Origin: Methanosarcina barkeri MS
GTDB lineage: Archaea; Halobacteriota; Methanosarcinia; Methanosarcinales; Methanosarcinaceae
Assembly (NCBI RefSeq): GCF_000970025.1
Contig: NZ_CP009528.1
Coordinates: forward strand, 3,087,168 to 3,151,167
Length of the DNA: 64,000 nt
Direction: 5' to 3'
A program made the position numbers and the translations under genes. This document shows, in pieces, positions 47,545 to 63,685 of this stretch. Below the pieces are notes generated by a model. The model saw nothing but the letters and a program-made list of their open reading frames with translations. It was not told where the DNA came from and searched no databases. Every line of letters begins with the position of its first letter. The first letter of the stretch is position 1.

Positions 47545-49049
47545 TTAAAGGAAACGGATTCCTTTCGGCATTTCACCTACTCTCTTTCTAAACTCCTCAG
47601 GCCAATTTGCAGGGTCAAGCCCTTTCTGCGCAAGGAAGACCGCAGTCCATCTTTCAAGCCCGACTCCGGAACAGCCAGACCAAATCTTCTCCAGACTGAA
47701 GTTTTACATTGAAGCCTTTGGGATACTTGTCTCCGTTGATACTCACATTCTGGAACTCGAGCCACTCTCCATCCGGCCCACGGTAAGGCAGGCAGGCCTC
47801 GTAATCGGTGGTCCCGACAGTGTTTTCTTCGGTAAGTCCGAGCAGCCCTTCCTGTGCCATGAACCAGAAAGTAACTCTTGCTTTTCTCCACCGATGTCCA
47901 GGATGTCGTTGAAGATATGCATATAACGATCATGCAGTTCTTCTGCGCACTTTGTTACCTCTTCTTTTGTCCCGATCCAGACAATTTCGACCCTGTGGAA
48001 TTCATCGACCCTTTCGATACCGTGAATTCCGCCACTCTCATATCTGTGAGAGGTTCCAGACCTGTCAAAGACCTTTACAGGAATTTCCTCATTTGGAAGG
48101 GTTTCCCTTGCTACGTACATCCAGAAAGGCGGGCATTGGGCATAGCACATGCCTCCGATTGGCTCTGCGATTTTTTCCTTGATCAGTTTTGTGGGCGCTT
48201 CATGAGTAACCTTGTAGTAATCGGCAACCTCTTCCCAGTAATCGGGATCCCTTGTCTGCGGAGGACACACATAATATATCTCAGAGTAGACACCCTTTGC
48301 ATGCCCGGATTTCATCCAGACTTCCCAGGTGACCAGTTTCGGGAAAATCATTTCCCTGTATCCGAGAGGTTCTAGAAGTTCTTCAAGGACGATTTTTTTG
48401 AAAGTCCGAAAGATCTTTGTGGACTGTGGCCCGTGGATCCACTGTCCGCGGCTTGACCCACGTTTGAGCCAGCCTTCTTTCATCATAGCCTGGGTCGGGT
48501 CTTCCTTGAAAGGATGCTCCATTGGCTCTCTCTGCCAGAGCAGATTCCAGTGCTCAGCCTTTGCTCCATACTGGGCAGCCTCGATCTTTTCTTCAAGAAG
48601 GGTGAGAATCCTGTCCGGAACCCGGTTCTTCATCTCAGCTTCTCCGACCTCAAGTTAGAGCTGAATCCCGCCTTCAATGTTTTCCATACTTTTTATATAA
48701 GGCACTTTGAGCATCCTGAGCTCGTGGTCAGCCGGCACTCTAATTGTGAGAGTTCAACCTCGATTCCGCGAATTCCTATCTTGTATTTCTTGCCGAGTGC
48801 CTCAGCAAGCTGTTTTCTCAGACGGAAAATTGCATCGTGCACCCTGACATACCTGCCGGACTGGAGCACAAGCTTGATCCTGTCCTCCCCGAGCTTCCAT
48901 TCCGTAACCTTTGCTCCCTATCCTTCAGGCACCCCTCGGGTGAGAAGGGTATTGTTTGCTTCTTCAAAAAGCGCAGCTATAGCATCCTTTGCAGTAGCGG
49001 GATCTGCGCTTGTTTTAAAATAAGCTTTGGGATTGAACTGTAATTTCAA
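47545..49049 (-). pseudogene. serS: Methanogen-type (class 2) seryl-tRNA synthetase, inactivated
   Basis: The intact enzyme charges tRNA-Ser. The frame starts at TTG 49049 ([20 protein letters not shown]) and is recognisable to [10 protein letters not shown] before TAA 47545-47547, the full family length of about 500 codons. It carries five lesions: TAG at 48918-48920; a frameshift near 48741-48755; TAA at 48655-48657; a frameshift near 47890 (after DILDI); and a frameshift near 47683 (after LQSGE). The longest intact stretch (48633-47893) includes the zinc-binding core with [32 protein letters not shown] and [12 protein letters not shown]. Two stops and three frame changes cannot be sequencing noise alone. 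A bacterial-type SerRS elsewhere would have to serve the cell; Methanosarcina barkeri is known to hold both types. Confidence 0.9.
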
Positions 49050-49849: not shown

Positions 49850-50140
49850 ATGGATGTTAACCAGATCCGGCTCCTTATCTTAGAAAGAAAGGACGAAATA
49901 AAAGAAAAGTTCAAAGCTGAAGTCCTGGGCGTTTTCGGCTCATACGCACGTGGCGAAGAAAAAAAAGAAAGTGATATTGACGTCCTTGTGAGGTTTGGAG
50001 AAGGAGCTACCCTCTTACACCTTGTGGGACTTGGATATTATCTTGAGGACTTATTTGGAGTTCCAGTTGATGTTGTTTCAGAAAGGGCTCTCCACCCGAT
50101 GATGAAAGATGACGTGTTAAAAGAGCTGGTACCGGTATGA
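49850..50140 (+). CDS. mntA: MntA-type nucleotidyltransferase antitoxin
   Basis: 96 residues, a minimal nucleotidyltransferase. GVFGSYARGEEKKESDIDVL has the GS-x10-DxD signature, and a third acid lies in PVDVVSERAL. MntA proteins AMPylate a tyrosine of the HepT toxin and thereby silence it (type VII toxin-antitoxin). The stop overlaps the start of the next gene by 4 nt (ATGA), giving strict coupling. A TATA-like element stands about 100 nt upstream. It opens the defence-rich stretch to the right. Confidence 0.93.
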   Translation: MDVNQIRLLILERKDEIKEKFKAEVLGVFGSYARGEEKKESDIDVLVRFGEGATLLHLVGLGYYLEDLFGVPVDVVSERALHPMMKDDVLKELVPV

Positions 50141-50481
50141 GATCCCCTCTTCTCTATCTTTCCGAGATAATGTCCGCCGCTGTAGCTATACAAGATTTCA
50201 CTGAGGGAATGGACAGAGAAACTTTTCTGAATGATGAGAAAACAAAAAGTGCAGTTGTCCGCCAGTTAGAAATAATAGGTGAAGCTGCAAAAGCTATTCC
50301 TGCAGATATAAAGGCTTTAGCTCCTGATATAGATTGGAGAAATATATCAGGTATGAGAGATCGAATAATACACGCTTATTTTAATGTTGATTATAACCTT
50401 GTCTGGGATACCATAGTAAGTGATATTCCAGTGCTTGAGAGCAGAATTGAAATGCTAGTTAACGAGTTAAAAAATAGCTGA
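50137..50481 (+). CDS. hepT: HepT-type ribonuclease toxin (DUF86)
   Basis: 114 residues, all helical. MRDRIIHAYFNVDYNLVWDT holds the R-x4-H-x-Y active site, whose Tyr is the AMPylation target in characterised pairs. RQLEIIGEAAKAIP is the other conserved helix. The toxin cuts RNA (tRNA in characterised cases) when not modified by MntA. The 4-nt overlap with mntA makes the pair one operon. Both genes look intact. Confidence 0.93.
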   Translation: MRSPLLYLSEIMSAAVAIQDFTEGMDRETFLNDEKTKSAVVRQLEIIGEAAKAIPADIKALAPDIDWRNISGMRDRIIHAYFNVDYNLVWDTIVSDIPVLESRIEMLVNELKNS

Positions 50482-51619: not shown

Positions 51620-51975
51620 AAAGTGTTTATTTTGCCTGCGGGGTATAATAGTATTATTACCAAACATTTGAAAAAATATTTAGAGTTGAGTTTAGTACTG
51701 TACGTGATCCGTAAGAAAATAAAAAAGGTATTAAAGATTGTCTCCTGTCGAATAGTATATACGCTTACTGTAAAAGTTATAGCAGGTCACAATACTTTTT
51801 GGATAGGGTCTAAGTTGGGATTAAGTCTAGAATGCTCCGTTTAAGAAAATGTTAGAACTCTACTTTTGTTTTATATAATCGGCACTTTTTTAAATCATTT
51901 TAGCGCTTAACTTTGAAACACATATAATTGTCTTCACTTTACTTACTGACGTTTGAAATGCGGAGAATTAGAAAA
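51620..51975. other. Intergenic between the MBL-fold and hsdM genes
   Basis: Should hold the promoter of the hsdMMS operon; no clear TATA box stood out, and no gene is recognised. Confidence 0.4.
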
Positions 51976-53460
51976 ATGAACAAAATGACCCTTTCAGAAT
52001 TAGAGCAGTCACTCTGGGGTGCCGCCAATATATTGCGAGGCCCTGTCGATGCTTCTGATTTTAAATCATATATATTTCCCGTACTTTTTTTCAAAAGAAT
52101 CTCTGATGTTTATGATGAAGAATATAAAGAAGCTCTTGAAGAATCAGAAGGTGACGAAGAATACGCTGGATTAAGCGAATTTCACGACTTCAACATCCCT
52201 GAAAAAGCTCACTGGAAAGATATCCTGGAAACAACCCAGAATGTTGGTCAAGCTCTTCAATACGCCTTCAGAGAAATCGAAAAATCAAATCCTGATCAGC
52301 TTTACGGCATATTTGGAGATGTGAACTGGACAAACAAAGACAGATTATCCGATGAGCTCTTGATTAACCTTATCCAACACTTTAACTCTCTCGTACTTTC
52401 AAAATCCAATGTAGAACCTGACATGCTTGGCCAAGCTTATGAATACCTTATTAAAAAATTTGCAGACCTTACGAACAGAAAAGCAGGCGAGTTCTATACA
52501 CCAAGGCCGATAGTCCATTTAATGGGCAGTATTCTGAAACCCCAGGAGGGAGAAACAATTTACGATCCTGCATGCGGTTCAGGCGGTATGCTTCTCGAGT
52601 CCTATCATTATGTTAAAAGTAATGGAGGAGATGCAAGAACACTAAAACTGTACGGCCAGGAAAAAAACCTGACAACCTCTTCAATTTCAAGAATCAATTT
52701 ATTTATCCATGCAGTACAGAGCTTCCAGATAATTCGAGGCGATACATTAAGAGAGCCTGCTTTTCTTGAGGGTGATAGGCTTGCTCAATTTGATATCGTA
52801 ATTGCAAATCCTCCATTTTCACTGAAAAAGTGGGGGTATGAAAACTGGTCGCAAGATCCATACGGCAGAAATATTGTAGGCACTCCACCCAAAAGTAACG
52901 GAGACTATGCCTGGGTCCAGCACATGATTGCTTCAATGGATCCTGAAACCGGAAGAATGGCAATTGTGCTGCCTCATGGGGCTCTCTTCAGGCAGGGAGC
53001 CGAAGGAAAAATCAGAAAAGCACTGATTGAAATGGACCTGCTGGAGGCTGTTATCGGGCTTGGTCCAAACCTGTTTTACGGAACCGGAATTAGTGCCTGT
53101 ATTCTCGTTTTCCGCTCAAAGAAAACCAATGAAAGAAAGAACAGGGTACTTTTCATCGATGCATCTGAACAGTACCAGAAAGGCAGAAGCCAGAACATTT
53201 TCCTGCCAGAGAATGCGGAAACCGTACTTAAGTGGTATGAGAATTATGGAGATATTGAAAATATATCTCAGGTAGTTGAGCTTTCAGAAATTCAGAAAAA
53301 CGAATTCAACCTTAATATTCCACTCTATGTCAAAAAAATCCATGAAGTAGAAAAGATTGACCTGAAAGTCACCCTTGAACAGCTAAAAAAGGATTACAAA
53401 GCTTTTCTGGAGTCCGAAGAAAAAATGAAGCGGTTACTTAAAGAAGTGAATGTTCTATGA
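51976..53460 (+). CDS. hsdM: Type I restriction-modification DNA methyltransferase subunit HsdM, paralogue 1
   Basis: N6-adenine methyltransferase subunit that works with HsdS. I start at ATG 51976 (MNKMTLSELEQSLWGAANIL), because ggag lies 10 nt upstream; 494 residues. HsdM N-terminal domain (SYIFPVLFFKRISDVYDEEY), then AGEFYTPRPIVHLMG (motif X), IYDPACGSGGMLLES (motif I, SAM), YGQEKNLTTSSISRINLFIH and IVIANPPFSLKKW (catalytic NPPF, motif IV). The C-terminal helices (VEKIDLKVTLEQLKKDYKAF) should meet HsdS. Its stop overlaps the start of a second HsdM gene by 4 nt (ATGA), so both are made from one message. Confidence 0.95.
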   Translation: MNKMTLSELEQSLWGAANILRGPVDASDFKSYIFPVLFFKRISDVYDEEYKEALEESEGDEEYAGLSEFHDFNIPEKAHWKDILETTQNVGQALQYAFREIEKSNPDQLYGIFGDVNWTNKDRLSDELLINLIQHFNSLVLSKSNVEPDMLGQAYEYLIKKFADLTNRKAGEFYTPRPIVHLMGSILKPQEGETIYDPACGSGGMLLESYHYVKSNGGDARTLKLYGQEKNLTTSSISRINLFIHAVQSFQIIRGDTLREPAFLEGDRLAQFDIVIANPPFSLKKWGYENWSQDPYGRNIVGTPPKSNGDYAWVQHMIASMDPETGRMAIVLPHGALFRQGAEGKIRKALIEMDLLEAVIGLGPNLFYGTGISACILVFRSKKTNERKNRVLFIDASEQYQKGRSQNIFLPENAETVLKWYENYGDIENISQVVELSEIQKNEFNLNIPLYVKKIHEVEKIDLKVTLEQLKKDYKAFLESEEKMKRLLKEVNVL

Positions 53461-54959
53461 ACTCAGATAATTCTCACGTAAGCCAGCAGGAACTTGAGCA
53501 GTACCTGTGGGGTGCAGCTACTCTTCTCAGGGGAGGCGTTGACCCTGGAGAATACAAAAATATCATTTTTCCCCTGATGTTTTTCAAACGAATTTCCGAT
53601 GTATACGAGGAAGAATTCGAAGAAGCTCTCAGGGAATCTGACGGAGACCTTGAATACGCCCAGTTTGCAGAAAATCACCGTTTCATAGTTCCAGACGGCT
53701 CACACTGGAAAGATGTAAGGGAAATCACCACTGATGTAGGAAAAGCGATCCGAGATGCAATGCGTGAAATCGAAAAAGCCAACCCTGACAAACTTGAGGG
53801 CATCTTCGGGGACGGAAACTGGACAAATAAAGACCGTTTGAGCGATAAAACCCTCATAGATCTGCTAGAACACTTTTCAAGCCTGAGTCTCACTATAAAA
53901 AACGTTCCTCAGGACCAGTTTGGGAATGCCTATGAGTATCTTATTAAAAAATTCGCGGATGATAGTGGCCACACCGCAGCCGAATTTTATACCAACAGAA
54001 CAGTTGTCCGTCTGATGGCTTTAATTATGGACCCTAAATCAGGAGAATCTATTTACGACCCGACCTGCGGCTCTGGCGGAATGCTTCTGAACTCCCTCCT
54101 TCTGGTGAAAGAAAGAGGTGAAGAATACCGCAATATCAAACTCTACGGCCAGGAAATTAACCTTATAACTTCAGCTATTGCTCGCATGAATATGTTCATC
54201 CACGATGTCGGCGATTTCCAGATCATAAGAGGTGACACTCTTGAAGACCCAGCCTTCATCAAAAACGATAGGGTTCAGCAATTCGACATTGTAATTGCAA
54301 ATCCTCCTTATTCAATCAAAAAATGGAACCATAGCGGCTGGACAAAAGACCCCTGGGGCAGAAATATATACGGAACTCCTCCTCAGAGCTGTGCCGATTA
54401 CGCTTTTTTCCAGCATATTATATGTTCAATGAAAGAAGATACTGGCAGATGTGCAATTCTCTGGCCTCATGGAGTTCTATTCAGGGATTCTGAACAGAGT
54501 ATGAGGGCAAAATTGATTGAGGACGATTATGTGGATTGCGTGATAGGCCTGGGACCAAATTTATTCTACAATTCTCCAATGGAAGCCTGTATTGTCATTT
54601 GCAGAAAAAGCAAACCAGCCGAAAGAAAAGGAAAAATCATGTTTATAAACGGTTTTGAAGAAGTTATACAAGAAAAGCAACAAGCATTTTTGTCAGACGA
54701 AAACATCCAGACCCTCTTTGACCTGTACATAAACTATGAGAATGTCTCCAGAAAATCTTACGTTGCCACGATAAAAGAAGTGAAAGAAAACGACTACAAT
54801 CTCAACGTACCTCTCTATGTCGAGAAGTACGATCTTGGAGAAGTAAAAGAACCGTTAGAAGTACTGATTCAGGAATGGACAGAAAGCAGCCAGAGAATAA
54901 AAGAAGCAAATGAAGAGATATTTTCAATCTTATCAGAGGTAGGATTAAATGACCAGTAA
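53457..54959 (+). CDS. hsdM: Type I restriction-modification DNA methyltransferase subunit HsdM, paralogue 2
   Basis: 500 residues, collinear over the full length with paralogue 1, with about half the residues shared by eye. Motif I IYDPTCGSGGMLLN and motif IV IVIANPPYSIKKW are intact. Motif X reads AAEFYTNRTVVRLM, with Asn where paralogue 1 and most HsdM proteins have Pro. It overlaps paralogue 1 by 4 nt and hsdS by 11 nt, so M1-M2-S is one tightly coupled operon. A usual type I methyltransferase is M2S with identical M subunits; here a mixed M1M2S enzyme is possible, or one of the two may be preferred. Both reading frames are undamaged. Confidence 0.95.
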   Translation: MNSDNSHVSQQELEQYLWGAATLLRGGVDPGEYKNIIFPLMFFKRISDVYEEEFEEALRESDGDLEYAQFAENHRFIVPDGSHWKDVREITTDVGKAIRDAMREIEKANPDKLEGIFGDGNWTNKDRLSDKTLIDLLEHFSSLSLTIKNVPQDQFGNAYEYLIKKFADDSGHTAAEFYTNRTVVRLMALIMDPKSGESIYDPTCGSGGMLLNSLLLVKERGEEYRNIKLYGQEINLITSAIARMNMFIHDVGDFQIIRGDTLEDPAFIKNDRVQQFDIVIANPPYSIKKWNHSGWTKDPWGRNIYGTPPQSCADYAFFQHIICSMKEDTGRCAILWPHGVLFRDSEQSMRAKLIEDDYVDCVIGLGPNLFYNSPMEACIVICRKSKPAERKGKIMFINGFEEVIQEKQQAFLSDENIQTLFDLYINYENVSRKSYVATIKEVKENDYNLNVPLYVEKYDLGEVKEPLEVLIQEWTESSQRIKEANEEIFSILSEVGLNDQ

Positions 54960-56190
54960 CCTGAAAAACGTTCCTCCAAACTGGCAAAAAGTAAGATTTG
55001 ATGAAATTGCCACAATTGTTACAGATAGGATAGAAAAACCTATCGAATCAGGACTCAAAGACTACATTGGCCTGGAGCATCTGGACACTGACTGTATAAG
55101 AATCAAGAGATTTGGTTCAACGGAAGATGTTGACGCAACAAAATTCCTCTGTAAAAAAGGAGACATCATTTTCGGAAAACGCCGTGCATATTTGAGAAAA
55201 GTTGCAGTAAGCGACCGAGACGCTGTAGTTTCAGCTCACTCAATGGTTCTTCGCCCAACGGGAGATAAAATCTACCCTGACTTTTTACCTTGTTTCATGC
55301 AATCAAGTATCTTCTGGAAGACTGCACACTCAATTTCCGAAGGATCAATGTCCCCAACAATAAAATGGAAAAACCTTGCCGCACAGGAATTCTGGCTTCC
55401 AAGCATCGAAGAACAAAAGAAGATCTCTGGACTTCTCTGGTCCATCGAAGATAACATCCAGAAAACCGAAAAACTCATAGAAACAACTGAAACACTCAAA
55501 CAGGGGCTTCTTAATGAACTGCTGACAAAAGGAATTGGGCATACCCGATTTAAAGATAGTGAACTGGGGAGGATTCCGGAGGAATGGGAAGTTGTGAGAT
55601 TAGGGAATATATCAAATGTGAGGAGAGGAGCATCACCACGTCCAATTAACGATTCTAGATATTTTGATTCAGAAGGGACTGGTTGGATCAGGATTGCAGA
55701 TGTTACCTCCACATATAAATATATCAATAAAACATCTCAATATCTCTCGGAGTTAGGAGTTTCTAAAAGTGTACCAGTGCATAGAGGGGATCTGATAATG
55801 AGCATATGTGCTACAATAGGTAAGCCTGTAATTGTTGATATGGATGCCTGTATACATGATGGATTCGTTCTATTTTCTGATATAAAGAAAGGAATTATCA
55901 ATGACTTTTTGTTTTATGTATTACTAAAGAGTGAAAAAGAATTTGAGAATAAAAGACAAGTTGGAACTCAAGGAAATTTAAATACTGATATAGTTAAAAA
56001 AACAAAAATTGCGTTGCCTAGCTCTTTAGAAGAACAAAAAAAGATAGTTAGTATTTTTGAGAATATAGACAGTATAATAGAAACATATCATTTAAGTTTA
56101 AGTAATCTTGGTCACCTCAAAAAGAAAATATTAAATGAAATGCTCTCAGGGAATCTAATGCTTAAGTGTATTCCAGTAATCATTTCATGA
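54949..56190 (+). CDS. hsdS: Type I restriction-modification specificity subunit HsdS
   Basis: 413 residues with two target-recognition domains (about 1-150 and 205-350), each followed by a helical spacer. The central conserved region is LWSIEDNIQKTEKLIETTET and LKQGLLNELLTKGIGHTRFK. The C-terminal one is EEQKKIVSIFENIDSIIETY, ending KKILNEMLSGNL. Between the halves, GRIPEEWEVVRLGNISNVRR is the standard start of the second domain. It sets the bipartite DNA site; the site cannot be predicted from sequence. The start overlaps hsdM2 by 11 nt. The stop lies 4 nt from the stop of the opposite-strand nuclease gene. Confidence 0.95.
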   Translation: MTSNLKNVPPNWQKVRFDEIATIVTDRIEKPIESGLKDYIGLEHLDTDCIRIKRFGSTEDVDATKFLCKKGDIIFGKRRAYLRKVAVSDRDAVVSAHSMVLRPTGDKIYPDFLPCFMQSSIFWKTAHSISEGSMSPTIKWKNLAAQEFWLPSIEEQKKISGLLWSIEDNIQKTEKLIETTETLKQGLLNELLTKGIGHTRFKDSELGRIPEEWEVVRLGNISNVRRGASPRPINDSRYFDSEGTGWIRIADVTSTYKYINKTSQYLSELGVSKSVPVHRGDLIMSICATIGKPVIVDMDACIHDGFVLFSDIKKGIINDFLFYVLLKSEKEFENKRQVGTQGNLNTDIVKKTKIALPSSLEEQKKIVSIFENIDSIIETYHLSLSNLGHLKKKILNEMLSGNLMLKCIPVIIS

Positions 56191-56194
56191 AAAT

Positions 56195-57184
56195 TCAGGG
56201 GGAGTGCCCTATAATTTCCTCCACCATTTCAACAACATTTTTAGGAAAATCCAGATTATTGATCGCATCAGAAACAATATGAAGGTTCTCAAAATTAGTT
56301 ATACCTTTAGACTCATGGAACTTATTAGTCACCATAATTCCATTATCTATTTTTAGTAATTGGGTTACACCATAGAGTTTCATGACATCATACATCTTCG
56401 CTTCGGTGTTTTTGCATTCTATGATACAAACAGGTTTATCGTTCTTTGTGATAAGGACATCAAGTTCAGTAACTTCCGAGATTTCAGATTTCGAAGAGTT
56501 GCTTTCGATTAAGGCTTCAATTGTTTCGGGTTGTTCTCTCGCTCCTTTGTTGTATACCTGTACACTGTGAAAGATCTCAATATCTTCATTTGATTTGAAA
56601 TGTTCTTTTAAGGTATGGTAAACCCAGACTTCAAGAAACAAGCCGGTATATTCTGGTTTTATCCAGATTTCATAAAGGGCTTCTGAGATTTTGTAGAAAC
56701 AAAACTTTTCGGGAGTGCAAAGGGGAAAGTCTTCAGAATTAGATTCTTCATCTGCGAAAGTGACTTTATCGAATTCCTTTCCTTTGTGTTGTACCGAGTC
56801 AATGTAAATGTCAGGAGTTATTATCCCTATTTTTTCGGCTTTTTCACAAACATGAGCAAGAGATCTGTTTATTGTATTGGAGAATAATTGATCTGCGATA
56901 TTGGACAGGTTGGAAATATAGGTATAGTATTTTGAGGTTGATTTTCCGGGCATTGCTTTGGGAAGTAGGCGGGATTCCCGGATGAAGTCAAAAAAGTACT
57001 GGTAAGTGTTGTTTTCTTTGCTTATTTCTTGGGAATCGTCTTTTGAAGATAGGCCTGAAAAAGTTTGTTTTATAAAAAAGTTACGTAGAGTCCTGTCGTC
57101 TTCAAAAGCAAAGATTAGTTTCTTAATTTCTTCAGATTCCACGTAATCAAGAGGTTTGATAACTAAAGGAAAACCGTTATGCAT
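56195..57184 (-). CDS. PD-(D/E)XK nuclease-like protein, Card1/DUF1887-type C-terminus
   Basis: 329 residues from ATG 57184, chosen because it overlaps the upstream stop by 8 nt (ATGCATAA); an upstream start at 57223 also exists. The last third holds TELDVLITKNDKPVCIIECK, that is an acid, then D, a beta turn and ExK, the PD-(D/E)XK nuclease core, followed by a helix and a Leu-rich strand. FLEVWVYHTLKEHF before it resembles the helix that precedes the core in Card1/DUF1887 nucleases. The N-terminal 200 residues are not recognised and could be a sensor. It is co-transcribed with the YwgA-like gene and embedded between hsdS and hsdR, suggesting a defence role. The nuclease call rests on motifs alone. 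Confidence 0.6.
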   Translation of the reverse strand: MHNGFPLVIKPLDYVESEEIKKLIFAFEDDRTLRNFFIKQTFSGLSSKDDSQEISKENNTYQYFFDFIRESRLLPKAMPGKSTSKYYTYISNLSNIADQLFSNTINRSLAHVCEKAEKIGIITPDIYIDSVQHKGKEFDKVTFADEESNSEDFPLCTPEKFCFYKISEALYEIWIKPEYTGLFLEVWVYHTLKEHFKSNEDIEIFHSVQVYNKGAREQPETIEALIESNSSKSEISEVTELDVLITKNDKPVCIIECKNTEAKMYDVMKLYGVTQLLKIDNGIMVTNKFHESKGITNFENLHIVSDAINNLDFPKNVVEMVEEIIGHSP

Positions 57185-57599
57185 TAAGTCTTTCTGGGAG
57201 GTATTTCCTGTAGACGTATTCAATTATTGCACTCCTGGGAAGTTCAGAAAGTTTTTTCAGGGTCTCTATTTTATCTCCAGGGATATATTCGGATGGAAGT
57301 TTAATTTCGGATTGGGCAAAATCCGAAAGCTTGTAGACATATGTGACAAAATCTCCGCAGTGCTCTTTTTCTTCTTTGATGTAGCCGGTTGCAATCAAAT
57401 CTTCAATGGTTTCAGTAAGATCCCAGGAATAAGGCCCGTAGTGATATTTATCGAATTTGAAAAATTCAGGGAGCCCAAGCTCCATTTGTCCTAAAAATAC
57501 TATTTTTTGTAATTTGGTTCTGCCTTCTATTTTACCCAGTCCTGAGAGAAGTTCAAGAATGAAAGCTTTTCTGGAACTGGATTTGTCCTCTTCTGGCAT
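57177..57599 (-). CDS. YwgA-like protein of unknown function
   Basis: 140 residues from ATG 57599 (MPEEDKSSSRKAFILELLSG); a longer frame starts at 57623. RTKLQKIVFLGQMELGLPEF, YHYGPYSWDLTETIEDLIAT and GYIKEE follow the pattern K-LQK-iYl, YGPYS, L, L-GyI of Bacillus YwgA and the related SocA/DUF4065-like proteins, which adopt a winged-helix-like fold and include antitoxins and proteolytic adaptors. The stop overlaps the start of the nuclease gene by 8 nt, so the two proteins are made together. A partner or antitoxin role for the nuclease is inferred from this coupling only. Confidence 0.6.
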   Translation of the reverse strand: MPEEDKSSSRKAFILELLSGLGKIEGRTKLQKIVFLGQMELGLPEFFKFDKYHYGPYSWDLTETIEDLIATGYIKEEKEHCGDFVTYVYKLSDFAQSEIKLPSEYIPGDKIETLKKLSELPRSAIIEYVYRKYLPERLNA

Positions 57600-57716
57600 A
57601 CAATCCCCTTGTAACAACCGCATTTTTTGTATAATTTTTAATTAAATCTGTAGCGTTGTAGTGCTTAATACTGAAGCACTATTACCTATATGCACTATTA
57701 GTATTTGTCGTTTATT

Positions 57717-58598
57717 TCAAGATTTTGATTTCAAGAGGGATTTAAGTTCTTCAACACGCTCTATGTCTGCAATCATATCCGAAATGTCATTTAAATCCAG
57801 ATTATTTTTATCCATTATTTTGATCAACTTTTTTGGAGAATACTGATTTCTAAAGTTACTTGGAACCAGACTTCTGGTTGCTTCATAATACCAGAGAGCA
57901 ATCCCTGCAAAATAAATATCTGCTTTTATCAATTCACAAATCGAGGAAAAGTGCGTATTAACAACGAAAAAGTCATTAGTTGTGTGTACTTTACATTCTT
58001 CCAGAAACTTAATTGAATGATTGTTATTTGGAATCAGGTCGAGGCAAATTCCACAATTATGAAGCCAGATCAAAGCTTTGGTATAAGCTATTCCATAAAT
58101 CTTATTTTTGTGCCATGCTGATTTTAGTCCTATGATCTTGTAAGCCTCATTTGAAGAAGCAACTTCTACAAGCAGGTTTTTCTGTTGATCTAAATCTTCA
58201 GATATACTTTGAATGTATTCGGCATTTAATTTTATAGAGTTAAAAACAGAATCTGCAGACTTTAGGATAATTTCAATATCTGTGATTCCAGCATCCAGTT
58301 TATTGATAGCGGCAATCTTCCCTCTTTTGTTTGGCTCTTCTACAGCCTCTTTTTCAGCCAACAAATGAGTCTTTGCTGTCATGATCCAGCCGTAATCCAG
58401 CTTTTCTCGGTCAAGGAGCCTATATTTATTGAGAATATTGAATTCATAATTTACTTCTGCATCAGTCAGGTTTCCACCAAGAAGCGCAGCTATACAGAAG
58501 TTGTACCAGAGAGAATCATCGTCTGTTATCATTCCAGGTTTGTCCCAGGTCTCTTCAACTCTATTAACAAGCTTTTCAAAATCAGATGGAATTGTCAT
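57717..58598 (-). CDS. Unrecognised protein within the type I locus
   Basis: 293 residues from ATG 58598 (MTIPSDFEKLVNRVEETWDK); an upstream start at 58613 is possible. It is soluble and mostly helical. Two stretches, SLWYNFCIAALLGGNLTDAE near the N-terminus and AWHKNKIYGIAYTKALIWLH plus NNNHSIKFLEE in the middle, vaguely recall the layout of helix-hairpin-helix DNA glycosylases, but the catalytic Lys/Asp pair is not evident, so this is only a hint. It lies between the YwgA-nuclease pair and hsdR on the minus strand, 117 nt from the former. Base composition is like its neighbours. No function can be named. Confidence 0.7.
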   Translation of the reverse strand: MTIPSDFEKLVNRVEETWDKPGMITDDDSLWYNFCIAALLGGNLTDAEVNYEFNILNKYRLLDREKLDYGWIMTAKTHLLAEKEAVEEPNKRGKIAAINKLDAGITDIEIILKSADSVFNSIKLNAEYIQSISEDLDQQKNLLVEVASSNEAYKIIGLKSAWHKNKIYGIAYTKALIWLHNCGICLDLIPNNNHSIKFLEECKVHTTNDFFVVNTHFSSICELIKADIYFAGIALWYYEATRSLVPSNFRNQYSPKKLIKIMDKNNLDLNDISDMIADIERVEELKSLLKSKS

Positions 58599-58802
58599 AT
58601 TTACAGATATCACTCAACAAGTATTAATTTTTTTGTAAGTTTGCAGGGGGTAAATATCATTCACTACAAATGGAGTTTAGGTCTTCAAACATATAATTAA
58701 TACAAAAATATTCTATTATATTTAGTAAAAGTTAATTAGAGGTAATCAAAAATATGTTACAATAGTTTTACTCAAGATTTAATTAAAAGGAATGGGTTTC
58801 TG

Positions 58803-61700
58803 GTGTTCAACGAGGAAAATTCAGTTGAAAATTTTATTCGGGATCTATTGAAGAATATTGGATGGAGATTTGTCCCAAGAAGTGAACTCAACAGGGCAGA
58901 ATCAGATATTCTTGTAGAAGAAAATCTTGTAAATGCACTGGTCAGATTGAACCCTCTCGTTGCAGAAAACCCAAACCGTGCAGATGAAATCATCTATAAA
59001 TTAAGAGCTATTCTCATTTCTGTCAGAGGCTTAGGGCTTGTAAAAGCCAATGAAGAATTTTCCCGGTGGCTCAAAAATGAAAAAACCATGCCTTTTGGAG
59101 AGAGAGGGGAACACGTTTCTATAAAATTGATTGATTACGAGAAGCCGGAAAACAATGAATTCATAGTTACCACTCAGTACAGTTTCACACCGAAAAGAAA
59201 CCTGAACAGAAGACCAGACCTTGTACTACTGGTAAACGGGATTCCTCTGGTCATTGGGGAAGCAAAAAGTCCGGTGAGACCTTCAATATCCTGGCTTGAT
59301 GGAGCTATTCAGCTTGATGAGTATCAGAAATCCGTTCCGGAATTATTTGTGCCAAGCGTTTTCTGTTTTGCAAGCGAAGGGAAAAATTATCGTGTAGGGT
59401 CGGTCAAGCTTCCGATCGAAAAGTGGCAGCCCTGGAGAAAAACTACGGATACTACTTTTGAGCAACTGGAAGAAGTAAAACATGCTGTAAACCTGATGTT
59501 AAGTCCGGAAACTGTGCTTGATATTACGAAGAATTTTACAATATTCAGCACGGACCAGAACAGCCAGAAAATCAAAGTTCTCTGCCGGTACCAGCAGTAT
59601 GAAGCAACAAAGCAGATAATAAAAAGGGTAATTGAAGGTCGGATCAAAAAAGGGCTTATCTGGCATTTTCAGGGATCTGGAAAGTCTCTACTGATGGTCT
59701 ATGCAGCTCTGCAGCTTCGGCAGAATCCAGAACTTAAAAGTCCTACTGTTATCATTGTTGTGGATCGAATTGACCTGAACTCCCAGATTACCGGTACATT
59801 CAATGCTGCAAATATTCCAAATACAGTAACAACGGAATCAAGAGAAGAGTTGAAACGCTTACTTGAGCAGGATACACGAAAGATAATCATTACTACAATT
59901 CATAAATTCGCAGAGGCAGACGGCATTTTAAATGAAAGGGATAATATCATTGTGCTGGTTGACGAAGCCCATAGGACTCAGGAAGGCGATCTGGGAAAGA
60001 AGATGAGAGAAGCCCTGCCAAATGCGTTTCTTTTCGGGCTTACCGGCACTCCGATAAACACAAGAGATCGAAATACTTTCTGGGCTTTTGGGGCTGAAGA
60101 AGATAAAAACGGGTACATGAATAAATACGGTTTTGAGCAGTCACTGAAAGATAAAGCAACCCTTCCAATCTATTTTGTACCAAGACCCGTAGAACTCCAT
60201 ATCAACCAGAAAGCTATTGATGAAGCCTTCCATGAGATGATTGACCAGCTGGAAGAAGATGATAAAATCCAGCTATCAAAACGTGCCGCAAAATTCGGTG
60301 TACTTGTAAAGTCTCCAGATCGGATAAGAAAGGTCTGTAAAAACATTGTGGATCACTATAAAGAACATATAGAACCAAGTAATTTTAAAGGTCAAATCGT
60401 CACTTTCGATAGAGAGGCATGTCATCTCTACAAACAGGAAATTAATAAATACCTGAGTCCAGAGGAGTCTGCTGTTGTTATGACTCTAGGACAAAAAGAC
60501 CCGGAAGACTGGAAAGATAAATACTCACTAACTGATGATGAACTCGCAAAACTGCTGGATCGTTTCAGAGACCCGTCTGACCCTCTCAAACTCCTGATTG
60601 TAACCTCTAAACTCTTAACAGGTTTCGATGCTCCAATTAATGAGGTTATGTATCTTGACAAACCCATGAAAGACCATACTCTTCTTCAGGCAATTTGCCG
60701 GGTAAACCGTCCGTATAAAAACAAAGATCATGGGCTTGTAGTTGATTATTTAGGGATCTTTGATAATGTTGCAAATGCTCTCAACTTTGATATTAAAGAG
60801 ATACAGAACGTAATATCTAATCTTAACAAATTAAAAGACGAATTCCCGCTTGCCCTTGAAACATGCTTAGCTTATTTTGAAGGAATTGACCGGAGTCTTG
60901 AAGGATACGAGGGGTTACTTCCCGCCCAGGAATGTCTGCTCACAAATGAACGAAGGGATCAATTTGCAGCAGATTATTCATATCTTGCGAGACACTGGGA
61001 AGCTCTCTCTCCAGACTCATTTTTAAATCCGTATGAAACCGATTACAAATGGCTCACTCAGGTATATCAATCTATAAGACCAACAGACAGCAATGGGAAA
61101 CTTGTATGGTATGTACTTGGTCCTAAAACTCTTGATCTTATACATGAGAACACCACCGTTCAAATAATTCGAGATGATCTTGAAACGCTTATAATGGATG
61201 CAGATATCCTTGAGAAAATCTCAGAAAAAGAAGCATCCAAGAGAGCTAAAAATATTGAAATAAAAATTGAGTGGAAGCTACACAAGAATGCAAACGATCC
61301 ACGGTTTGAAGAGCTGGGTAAAAAACTTGAAGAGCTAAAAAACAAACATTATAAAAATACAATCAATAGCATTGAATTCTTAAAAGGACTTCTTGAGATT
61401 GCAAAGGAAACTGTCATACTTGAAAGAGAAACTCCTGCTGAACCTGTTGACAATACAAAGGAAGCTCTTACTCAATTATTTATGGAATGTAAAATCGAGC
61501 AAACCCCAGTAATAGTAGAAAAAATAGTAAACGACATCGATAGCGTTGTAAAATATACCAGATTTGACGGCTGGCAGTGGACTGATACGGGTGAAAAAGA
61601 GATAAAGAAAGCTCTGCGCAAAACATTGTTGAAATACAAGCTTCACAAAGATCAGGAGCTTTTCGATAAAGCTTATGAATATATAAGGGAACATTATTAA
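58803..61700 (+). CDS. hsdR: Type I restriction endonuclease subunit HsdR
   Basis: Translocase and nuclease subunit of the type I enzyme, 965 residues. The start is GTG 58803 with aaagga about 12 nt upstream. The N-terminal nuclease has NLNRRPDLVLLVNGIPLVIG then EAKSPVR (D-x12-ExK). The SF2 helicase motor has WHFQGSGKSLLMVYAA (Walker A), VLVDEAHRTQEGD (DEAH-type Walker B), FGLTGTPINTRD and AICRVNRPYKNKD. The C-terminal helical region (after about 700) binds the methyltransferase. It is 2.6 kb from hsdS with three opposite-strand genes between, so it has its own transcript. Intact. Confidence 0.95.
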   Translation: MFNEENSVENFIRDLLKNIGWRFVPRSELNRAESDILVEENLVNALVRLNPLVAENPNRADEIIYKLRAILISVRGLGLVKANEEFSRWLKNEKTMPFGERGEHVSIKLIDYEKPENNEFIVTTQYSFTPKRNLNRRPDLVLLVNGIPLVIGEAKSPVRPSISWLDGAIQLDEYQKSVPELFVPSVFCFASEGKNYRVGSVKLPIEKWQPWRKTTDTTFEQLEEVKHAVNLMLSPETVLDITKNFTIFSTDQNSQKIKVLCRYQQYEATKQIIKRVIEGRIKKGLIWHFQGSGKSLLMVYAALQLRQNPELKSPTVIIVVDRIDLNSQITGTFNAANIPNTVTTESREELKRLLEQDTRKIIITTIHKFAEADGILNERDNIIVLVDEAHRTQEGDLGKKMREALPNAFLFGLTGTPINTRDRNTFWAFGAEEDKNGYMNKYGFEQSLKDKATLPIYFVPRPVELHINQKAIDEAFHEMIDQLEEDDKIQLSKRAAKFGVLVKSPDRIRKVCKNIVDHYKEHIEPSNFKGQIVTFDREACHLYKQEINKYLSPEESAVVMTLGQKDPEDWKDKYSLTDDELAKLLDRFRDPSDPLKLLIVTSKLLTGFDAPINEVMYLDKPMKDHTLLQAICRVNRPYKNKDHGLVVDYLGIFDNVANALNFDIKEIQNVISNLNKLKDEFPLALETCLAYFEGIDRSLEGYEGLLPAQECLLTNERRDQFAADYSYLARHWEALSPDSFLNPYETDYKWLTQVYQSIRPTDSNGKLVWYVLGPKTLDLIHENTTVQIIRDDLETLIMDADILEKISEKEASKRAKNIEIKIEWKLHKNANDPRFEELGKKLEELKNKHYKNTINSIEFLKGLLEIAKETVILERETPAEPVDNTKEALTQLFMECKIEQTPVIVEKIVNDIDSVVKYTRFDGWQWTDTGEKEIKKALRKTLLKYKLHKDQELFDKAYEYIREHY

Positions 61701-61891: not shown

Positions 61892-63685
61892 ATGAGTGCG
61901 ATTACAACTTTTGACAGCACAAAGTCGTTCATGAAAGATATACTGAAAGACATCACAATCGGAAAAGTTCAACTTCCTGACTTTCAGCGTGGCTGGGTCT
62001 GGGACGATGAACGCATAAAAAGCTTGCTCGCGAGTGTTTCCCTTTCTTTTCCGATCGGAGCTGTAATGATGCTTCAAACTGGGAACGATGAGGTTCGTTT
62101 TAAGCCAAGACTCATCGAAGGTCTGATACTTGATCCACAACCAGAACCGAGTCAGCTGATTCTTGATGGACAGCAAAGATTAACTGCACTCTACCAGTCT
62201 ATTTTGAGAAAAAAAGCGGTTGATACTGAAGATATAAGGAAAAAACCGATTAAAAGGCACTATTACATCGATATTGAAAGATCCCTTAATCCATACGTGG
62301 ATAGAGAAGATTGTATCAGGAGCATCGCTGAAGATAGAATTGTCAGAAACTTCAGGGGGGAATCTATCGAGGATTACTCCACACCTGAAAATGAGTTTGA
62401 AGCAGGTCTATTTCCACTTAATCAGATTCTGGACAGCTCTAACTGGCGGATGGCGTATCAGGAGTACTGGTGGAACAGAGAATACGGAAAAAACAAGATA
62501 ATGATGTTTAGCGAATTTGAAAAGGAAGTAATAAGCCGCTTTGTGGAATATCAGATCCCCCTTATAATGATGAACAATAGTACACCAAAAGAAGCTGTAT
62601 GCCTCGTTTTTGAAAAGGTCAATACTGGCGGTGTAACGCTTACTGTATTTGAACTTCTTACAGCAACCTTTGCTGCGGATAATTTTAATCTTAGAGAAGA
62701 CTGGGAGAGAATCCGTAATAGTCATTTAAAGAAATTTAGTGTACTGCAAGGTATAGAAAATACAGACTTCCTTCAAGCCGTATGTCTTCTAGCCACTTTA
62801 AAAAAGAGGATAAAAAAACTTGAGGAAGGAGAAGCTGAAGAAAAAGCCCCTGCTGTCAGCTGTAAGCGTAAAGATATTCTCAAAATGAAACTGGAAGAAT
62901 ACACAGAAAATGCCGATAAAGTTGCCAAAGGTTTTGAAAAGGCTGCAAAACTTCTCAATATTCAAAATGTATTCACACCTAGAGATATTCCCTATAGAAC
63001 TCAGATAACTCCGCTAGCCGCAACCCTTGCAGTACTTGGAGACGAAGCCGATACAGACGGAGTTAGAAAGAAAATATTCCAGTGGTACTGGTGCGGTGTG
63101 CTGGGAGAATTATATGGAAGTGCCATAGAGACCCGTTTTGCAAAAGACTTACTTGAACTTCTCGATTGGATCAATGGAGGTCCAGAACCTTCAACTGTAA
63201 AGGAAGCAAGCTTTGACCCGGAACGCCTTAACACACTTCGAACCCGTAATAGTGCAGCATACAAAGGAATTTATGCGCTTCTCATGAGGGATGGAGGGAT
63301 AGACTTCAGAACCGGTGAGCCAATTGATATCCAGACATACTATGAGGACAATATCGATATTCATCATATCTTTCCTCAAGATTGGTGTAAAAACCATGGA
63401 ATTAGCCAAGATGAGTACAACAGCATTATCAACAAAACGCCCCTTTCTGCAAAAACCAACCGTATAATAGGTGGCAGTGCACCGAGTTTCTACGTAGAAA
63501 AGATTCAAAAAACTGCAGGAATCGATGAATTCAGGATGAATGAAATACTTTCAAGTCATGTAATAGAACCTTCACTTATCAGGAATGATGATTTCAATAA
63601 ATTCTTTGAAACTCGTAAAAAAGCAATTCTTAAAAGAATAGAAAAAGCAATGGGAAAGCCTGTTATTCATAGGGAAGAAGAATAA
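61892..63685 (+). CDS. DUF262/HNH endonuclease, GmrSD-like
   Basis: 597 residues. N-terminal DUF262 (ParB-like NTPase) domain: VQLPDFQRGWVWDDERIKSL, SFPIGAVMML and LILDGQQRLTALYQS (DGQQR is the family signature). C-terminal HNH/DUF1524-like nuclease: DIDIHHIFPQDWC (conserved His-His), NKTPLSAKTNRIIGG. Proteins of this build include the GmrSD enzymes that cut modified (glucosylated hydroxymethyl) cytosine DNA, and BrxU. It lies 191 nt after hsdR on the same strand. The pair could give complementary defence: type I against unmodified DNA, GmrSD-like against modified phage DNA. That division of labour is inferred. Confidence 0.9.
   Translation: MSAITTFDSTKSFMKDILKDITIGKVQLPDFQRGWVWDDERIKSLLASVSLSFPIGAVMMLQTGNDEVRFKPRLIEGLILDPQPEPSQLILDGQQRLTALYQSILRKKAVDTEDIRKKPIKRHYYIDIERSLNPYVDREDCIRSIAEDRIVRNFRGESIEDYSTPENEFEAGLFPLNQILDSSNWRMAYQEYWWNREYGKNKIMMFSEFEKEVISRFVEYQIPLIMMNNSTPKEAVCLVFEKVNTGGVTLTVFELLTATFAADNFNLREDWERIRNSHLKKFSVLQGIENTDFLQAVCLLATLKKRIKKLEEGEAEEKAPAVSCKRKDILKMKLEEYTENADKVAKGFEKAAKLLNIQNVFTPRDIPYRTQITPLAATLAVLGDEADTDGVRKKIFQWYWCGVLGELYGSAIETRFAKDLLELLDWINGGPEPSTVKEASFDPERLNTLRTRNSAAYKGIYALLMRDGGIDFRTGEPIDIQTYYEDNIDIHHIFPQDWCKNHGISQDEYNSIINKTPLSAKTNRIIGGSAPSFYVEKIQKTAGIDEFRMNEILSSHVIEPSLIRNDDFNKFFETRKKAILKRIEKAMGKPVIHREEE

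What the first reader, a model, noticed from the sequence alone, without database searches (positions are those of the whole stretch)
56195..57599. Coupled YwgA-like / PD-(D/E)XK nuclease pair, a candidate unnamed defence or toxin-antitoxin module
The two genes overlap by 8 nt. The second has a LDV-x10-ECK nuclease core like Card1/DUF1887 and an unrecognised 200-residue N-terminal part; the first resembles YwgA/SocA/DUF4065 proteins, a group that includes antitoxins. The location inside a restriction locus supports a role against foreign DNA.
Basis: inference. Interest (0 to 1): 0.7.

Follow-up and report, generated by a model that had tools for sequence, protein, structure and literature searches.

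The report
Archaeal nuclease with DarG-like antitoxin partner
Two overlapping genes in a methane-producing archaeon, a DNA-cutting-type enzyme and a small protein folded like a known antitoxin domain, travel together between defence-gene sites, so they are probably an unnamed toxin-antitoxin or antiviral pair; no activity has been tested.

Summary
The pair is real. A 148-codon YwgA-like gene (57177-57623, likely start 57599) overlaps a 342-codon nuclease gene (56195-57223), both on the minus strand. The nuclease C-terminus is a PD-(D/E)XK domain (PADLOC PD_DExK E=4.5e-11; Mrr_cat above cut-off in a relative); its N-terminal ~190 residues match nothing and no CARF domain aligns. The pair occurs in 3 of 238 Methanosarcinia genomes, always adjacent and overlapping, at three unrelated loci; the partner also occurs alone in four. 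Here it lies between hsdS and hsdR of a type I restriction locus. That interval is closed in five relatives and carries Gabija, an OLD-like gene or another gene in three; the second copy sits in another variable site where relatives carry defence-like genes. The partner's predicted structure (pLDDT 86) best matches, over nearly its whole length, the DarG chain of the DarTG complex (Z 9.6). Best reading: a mobile antiviral or toxin-antitoxin module in which the DarG-CTD-like protein restrains the nuclease. Inhibition, toxicity and antiviral effect are inferred. Main rival: a two-subunit Mrr-like restriction enzyme.

The parts
57177..57599 (-). YwgA-like partner gene, 140 aa from ATG 57599 (open frame to 57623, 148 aa); winged-helix domain plus C-terminal helices like the DarG C-terminal domain; candidate inhibitor/antitoxin
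   Evidence: ORF, AAGGGG before ATG; Bacillus YwgA, E 8e-16; DarG models; model pLDDT 86.3; 7yk3_B Z 9.6 over 123 residues
56195..57223 (-). PD-(D/E)XK nuclease gene, 342 aa from TTG 57223 (alternative ATG 57181)
   Evidence: PD_DExK 4.5e-11; Mrr_cat 25.3 bits versus cut-off 21 in the G127 homologue; invariant E198, D255, E269, K271; AGGAGTG before TTG
56411..56632 (-). stretch from the conserved Glu (E198, 56630-56632) to D255 (56459-56461), E269 (56417-56419) and K271 (56411-56413): putative catalytic core
   Evidence: invariant in the three homologues; aligned to the core of CARF-PDDEXK proteins
57177..57223 (-). 47-nt overlap of the two reading frames, within the codons for the partner's C-terminal EYVYRKYLPERLNA
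   Evidence: equivalent overlaps of 35 nt and about 41 nt in L044 (G170) and L158 (G127)
57659..57681 (.). perfect inverted repeat TAGTGCTT-7 nt-AAGCACTA upstream of the partner gene; operator or end of the neighbouring transcript; this sequence is not among the repeats found upstream in the two relatives
54949..56190 (+). hsdS, left border of the insertion interval (context, not part of the module)
58803..61700 (+). hsdR, right border of the insertion interval (context, not part of the module)
57717..58613 (-). unknown 298-aa gene inserted with the pair between hsdS and hsdR; absent beside the other two copies, so probably separate cargo
   Evidence: no credible family; no match in the other 59 relatives; loci L044 and L158 lack it

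Best explanation
A mobile two-gene antiviral or toxin-antitoxin-type module. The second gene makes a metal-dependent PD-(D/E)XK DNase with its own N-terminal domain. The first makes a small acidic YwgA-like protein with the fold of the DarG C-terminal domain. I propose that the small protein binds the nuclease and keeps it off DNA in healthy cells, as DarG-CTD sequesters DarT, and that the two are made together from overlapping genes. When infection or loss of the locus removes or titrates the inhibitor, the nuclease cuts DNA and stops the virus or the cell. Shown here: the two genes, their overlap, co-inheritance at three loci, the nuclease core, the partner's predicted fold, and insertion sites shared with defence genes. 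Inferred: DNA as substrate, direct inhibition, trigger and outcome.
For: Co-inheritance: 3 of 3 nuclease homologues in 238 class genomes are adjacent to and overlapped by the partner, at hsdS-hsdR, mfnB-cdc48, and between an ABC permease-type gene and a tnpB-like gene. The partner exists without the nuclease in G117-G120, as orphan antitoxins do; no orphan nuclease was seen. Partner fold: the top VIA-align match is the 7yk3 DarTG complex, Z 9.6 over 123 residues (15-148), while the ordinary winged-helix rows shown cover about 70-101. DarG profiles match all four partner proteins tested. DarG-CTD binds DarT and mimics DNA (PMC8385414; PMC11481870). Nuclease: PADLOC PD_DExK and Pfam Mrr_cat/HSDR_N/NERD matches at one motif with invariant catalytic residues. 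Context: hsdS-hsdR is closed (10 to about 140 nt) in five relatives and holds Gabija (G120), an OLD-like gene (G004) or a 583-aa unknown gene (G170) in three. In G170's genus mfnB-cdc48 is closed (104-217 nt) in 11 genomes and elsewhere holds, for example, an AbiL/PDC-M38-like ATPase pair or an HNH effector-like gene.
Against: No activity was tested. The partner's winged-helix fold is also that of DNA-binding regulators (PadR/LmrR, Z about 8; VanR Z 9.1 is tied with DarG on Z alone), so binding to DNA instead of to the nuclease is possible. Antitoxin-before-toxin order and overlap are also common in ordinary operons. The Foldseek E-value for 7yk3 is weak (4.2e-3, TM 0.43). Only three pairs are known, all in one family of archaea. 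The G127 nuclease has an in-frame TAG and may be a pseudogene. The nuclease is acidic overall (pI about 5), which is not typical of a free DNA binder.
Confidence: 0.52

Rival explanations
1. A two-subunit type IV-like restriction enzyme: the winged-helix partner recognises (perhaps modified) DNA and recruits the Mrr-like nuclease, so it is an aiming subunit and not an inhibitor.
For: Mrr_cat is matched above cut-off in the G127 copy. The partner has a winged-helix core with close fold matches to DNA-binding regulators. PADLOC type I specificity model PDLC03184 matches the partner at profile positions 431-538, which suggests that a similar domain occurs fused to specificity subunits.
Against: The partner is acidic (pI 5.3-5.9) and its best, longest fold match is DarG-CTD, a protein-binding DNA mimic. 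The partner persists alone in four species, where an aiming subunit would have no enzyme.
Confidence: 0.25
2. The partner is only a transcriptional autoregulator of the nuclease gene (PadR-like repressor), with no direct protein contact.
For: Winged-helix fold; inverted repeat 57659-57681 upstream of the partner gene.
Against: That repeat is not among those found upstream of the pair in G170 or G127. The 35-47 nt gene overlap favours fixed co-production. The match to DarG-CTD includes the C-terminal helices absent from PadR matches.
Confidence: 0.15
3. An accessory of the type I restriction system in which it sits.
For: Position between hsdS and hsdR.
Against: The other two copies are not next to hsd genes; G170 has the orthologous hsd locus elsewhere with a different gene in the interval; five relatives have hsdS next to hsdR.
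Confidence: 0.04
4. Two unrelated neighbouring genes.
For: None beyond the small sample of three copies.
Against: Three of three homologues are adjacent and overlapping at three different loci.
Confidence: 0.01

Closest known systems
DarTG toxin-antitoxin system (DarG C-terminal domain)
   Same: The partner has the DarG-CTD fold and matches DarG profiles; small inhibitor-type protein encoded with a DNA-acting enzyme
   Different: No macrodomain in the partner; the enzyme is a PD-(D/E)XK nuclease, not an ADP-ribosyltransferase
Bacillus YwgA family
   Same: Sequence homologue over residues 17-116, 35-40% identity
   Different: YwgA lies beside an HD-domain gene without a nuclease in the annotated example and has a longer C-terminus; its function is unknown to me
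Panacea/SocA/DUF4065 antitoxins (PanAT)
   Same: By analogy: small antitoxin domains paired with diverse toxins in bacteria and archaea (PMC8832971)
   Different: No DUF4065 match at E<=1 for any partner protein
Card1/Can2/DUF1887 (CARF-PD-(D/E)XK)
   Same: Same type of nuclease core: upstream E, xDV, ECK
   Different: No CARF domain aligned; two-gene arrangement with a YwgA-like partner
Mrr-type restriction endonucleases
   Same: Mrr_cat domain, above cut-off in one homologue
   Different: About 190-residue N-terminal part of unknown fold; separate partner protein

Membership tests
PD-(D/E)XK nuclease superfamily | E ... D-x(n)-E-x-K catalytic core in a matching profile | tested here: met
   PD_DExK E 4.5e-11; E198, D255, E269, K271 invariant; Mrr_cat 25.3 bits (cut-off 21) in the G127 copy
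Card1/Can2/DUF1887 | N-terminal CARF domain binding cyclic oligoadenylate | tested here: not met
   alignment to CARF-PDDEXK proteins covers only residues 193-274; no CARF match in Pfam; the full-length CARF_PDDEXK hits align only from residue 161 or 193 on
DarTG | DarG C-terminal toxin-binding domain fold | tested here: met
   DarG profiles 1.2e-6 to 2.1e-5 in PADLOC, 7e-4 in NCBIfam, the latter below its cut-off; 7yk3_B, Z 9.6, 123 residues
DarTG | DarG macrodomain and DarT ADP-ribosyltransferase | tested here: not met
   the partner is 140-148 aa and matches only the C-terminal part of DarG; the second gene is a PD-(D/E)XK protein
YwgA family | sequence homology to Bacillus YwgA | tested here: met
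   51 loci, nearly all Bacillales, best E 8e-16
Panacea/SocA (DUF4065) | DUF4065 domain profile match | tested here: not met
   no DUF4065 match at E<=1 for the window partner or three homologues; fold relation not tested directly
Mrr type IV restriction enzyme | Mrr_cat domain | tested here: inconclusive
   window copy 14.2 bits (below 21); G127 copy 25.3 bits (above)
Type II toxin-antitoxin system | toxicity of one protein and neutralisation by direct binding of the other | not testable with these tools
   needs expression and pull-down experiments
Type I restriction-modification subunit | constant association with hsd genes | tested here: not met
   two of three copies lie elsewhere; five hsd loci lack it
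PADLOC PDC-M19 | full-length PDC-M19A protein (294 positions) | tested here: not met
   only positions 3-129 matched

The most novel reading that the evidence does not exclude
A new kind of antiviral toxin-antitoxin system: a DarG-CTD-like DNA-mimic protein directly plugs the active site of a PD-(D/E)XK DNase, and archaeal viruses carry the same fold (top BFVD matches are Sulfolobus virus proteins) as antidotes that keep such nucleases silent.
Probability: 0.15. Interest if true: 0.75.

Novelty: new variant of a known kind. Interest (0 to 1): 0.5.

Why it matters
It links a widespread but uncharacterised protein family (YwgA, found across Bacillales) to a known antitoxin fold, and shows the fold paired with a DNA-cutting-type enzyme in archaea. 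If right, it gives YwgA-like proteins a testable function, namely direct inhibition of nucleic-acid enzymes. It also adds a compact defence module to methanogens and identifies two archaeal insertion sites (hsdS-hsdR and mfnB-cdc48) where further defence systems can be looked for.

Tried and rejected
Plasmid, phage and viral-contig searches with the nuclease and viral-contig searches with the partner gave no relatives. AlphaFold of the nuclease with two sequences was poor (pLDDT 42); fold searches with it gave no usable match (EcoT38I and EcoRI appear at Z 3.4-3.6, not interpreted). The G139 hit to PD_DExK is a spurious match to a different protein. YwgA relatives on plasmids and in other Methanosarcinia lack an adjacent nuclease like this one. 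No paper on YwgA function was found. PDB sequence searches were empty or chance. The profile comparison used overlapping sequence sets and is not used as evidence.

Full report
WHAT IS THERE. The window lies in a 4.57 Mb archaeal genome (G000). Two minus-strand genes lie at 56195-57623. The first, YwgA-like, is 148 codons from 57623, but the ATG at 57599 has the better ribosome-binding sequence. The second, 342 codons, starts at TTG 57223, preceded by AGGAGTG, so the frames overlap by 47 nt; from ATG 57181 the overlap is 5 nt. In two relatives the second gene starts with an ATG inside the partner's tyrosine-valine codons; in the window this is ACG. The core is LDV-x12-ECK.

THE NUCLEASE. PADLOC PD_DExK ('same family as the one fused to CARF, 1XMX') matches residues 249-303 at 4.5e-11. 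Weaker Pfam matches (HSDR_N, Mrr_cat, NERD, NucS) fall on the same motif. In the G127 homologue Mrr_cat exceeds its cut-off. Across three homologues at 37-40% identity, E198, D255, E269 and K271 are invariant. Profile comparison with CARF-PDDEXK proteins from related genomes aligns only residues 193-274, so this is not a Card1 protein. Residues 1 to about 190 match no library. They contain conserved blocks (LRNFFI, VCEKAEKxGI), so this part is real protein; its fold stays unknown because the AlphaFold model was poor.

THE PARTNER. It is a genuine relative of Bacillus YwgA and matches the C-terminal part of DarG in PADLOC and NCBIfam. A 26-sequence AlphaFold model has mean pLDDT 86.3. VIA-align ranks chain B of the M. 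tuberculosis DarTG complex (7yk3) first at Z 9.6, rmsd 3.4, 123 residues (15-148). The other rows shown are mostly PadR/LmrR-type winged helices at Z 7.3-9.1 that cover about 70-101 residues and lack the C-terminal helices. The top two rows are within 1 Z unit, so the preference for DarG rests on coverage plus the independent sequence-profile matches. The plain Foldseek score is modest. DarG's C-terminal domain sequesters DarT (PMC8385414) and mimics single-stranded DNA in its active site (PMC11481870). This makes an inhibitor role the best-supported guess for the partner, but it is an inference from fold.

CO-INHERITANCE. All 238 class genomes held were searched with profiles of both proteins. 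The nuclease occurs in three (G000, G170, G127), each time directly downstream of and overlapping the partner. The three places differ: hsdS-hsdR in the window; mfnB-cdc48 in G170; and in G127 a site between an ABC permease-type gene and a tnpB-like gene. The partner occurs without a nuclease in G117-G120. The G127 nuclease has one in-frame TAG at a tyrosine position. G127 encodes PylS, so the codon may be read as pyrrolysine or the gene may be broken.

THE SITES. The hsdM-hsdM-hsdS-hsdR locus is conserved in relatives. hsdS and hsdR lie within 10 to about 140 nt in G118, G171, G143, G151 and G152. In G120 the interval holds a complete Gabija pair (GajA E 6.5e-232, GajB E 1.8e-196), in G004 an OLD-like ATPase-TOPRIM gene, and in G170 a 583-aa protein of unknown family. 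In the window it holds this pair and an unrelated unknown gene (57717-58613). The mfnB-cdc48 site of G170 is closed (104-217 nt) in 11 genus members and open with varied genes in others. These include an AbiL/PDC-M38-like ATPase with a DUF3226 partner and an HNH protein like CBASS effectors. Both intact copies thus sit where relatives keep defence genes. This is the strongest evidence for a defence role, and it shows that the pair is not an accessory of restriction.

MECHANISM AND LIMITS. Shown: genes, overlap, invariant catalytic residues, partner's predicted fold, three separate placements, defence-gene sites. Inferred: DNA cleavage, direct inhibition, trigger, protection. I put the defence or toxin-antitoxin module with an inhibitor partner at about 0.5, a two-subunit Mrr-like restriction enzyme at 0.25, and a purely transcriptional partner at 0.15. 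Presence outside Halobacteriota is not known, because the one scan of all genomes was saturated by Bacillus YwgA.

VERDICT. A real, rare, mobile two-gene module whose combination (DarG-CTD/YwgA-like protein plus PD-(D/E)XK nuclease) I could not match to a named system in PADLOC, NCBIfam, Pfam or the papers searched. It is a new variant of a known kind: a familiar antitoxin-type fold with a different enzyme.

Noticed in passing
51928-54959: Two consecutive hsdM genes (about 50% identical, both with intact NPPF/NPPY and G-S-G-G motifs) in one operon with hsdS; both copies are conserved in the relatives examined whose contigs reach that far (loci L121, L122, L124-L128).
   Followed up: partly
57717-58613: 298-aa minus-strand gene with no credible family match and no homologue in the other 59 related genomes searched; inserted together with the pair between hsdS and hsdR.
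   Followed up: partly
61892-63685: GmrSD/DUF262-like gene downstream of hsdR; matches also follow hsdR in G004 and G120, so it may belong to the restriction locus.
   Followed up: no
49850-50481: Overlapping nucleotidyltransferase and HepT-like genes, an MNT/HEPN-type toxin-antitoxin pair; homologues also lie near the hsd locus in G004 and G118.
   Followed up: partly
47743-48633: Looks like an archaeal type-2 seryl-tRNA synthetase that ends early (296 aa with an odd C-terminus); may be frameshifted or a pseudogene.
   Followed up: no
L123:1254-5205, L121:3660-6016, L127:4642-6391: The hsdS-hsdR interval in relatives holds Gabija, an OLD-like gene, or a 583-aa protein without family: an insertion site for defence genes inside a type I restriction operon.
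   Followed up: yes
L131-L154, downstream of mfnB: The mfnB-cdc48 interval in G170's genus is a second variable site with AbiL-like, HNH, staphylococcal-nuclease-like, transposase and unknown genes.
   Followed up: partly
L158:519-1532: G127 nuclease homologue with one in-frame TAG at a tyrosine position in a genome with PylS: possible pyrrolysine-containing nuclease or a pseudogene.
   Followed up: partly
L175 (G000:C2:240651-241577): The window's own genome also encodes a separate CARF_PDDEXK-profile protein (about 404 aa), distinct from the nuclease studied here.
   Followed up: no
model of 57177-57623 against BFVD: The closest viral fold matches to the partner are uncharacterised proteins of Sulfolobus viruses (SEV1, SSV4, SPV2); they could be virus-borne inhibitors.
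   Followed up: no
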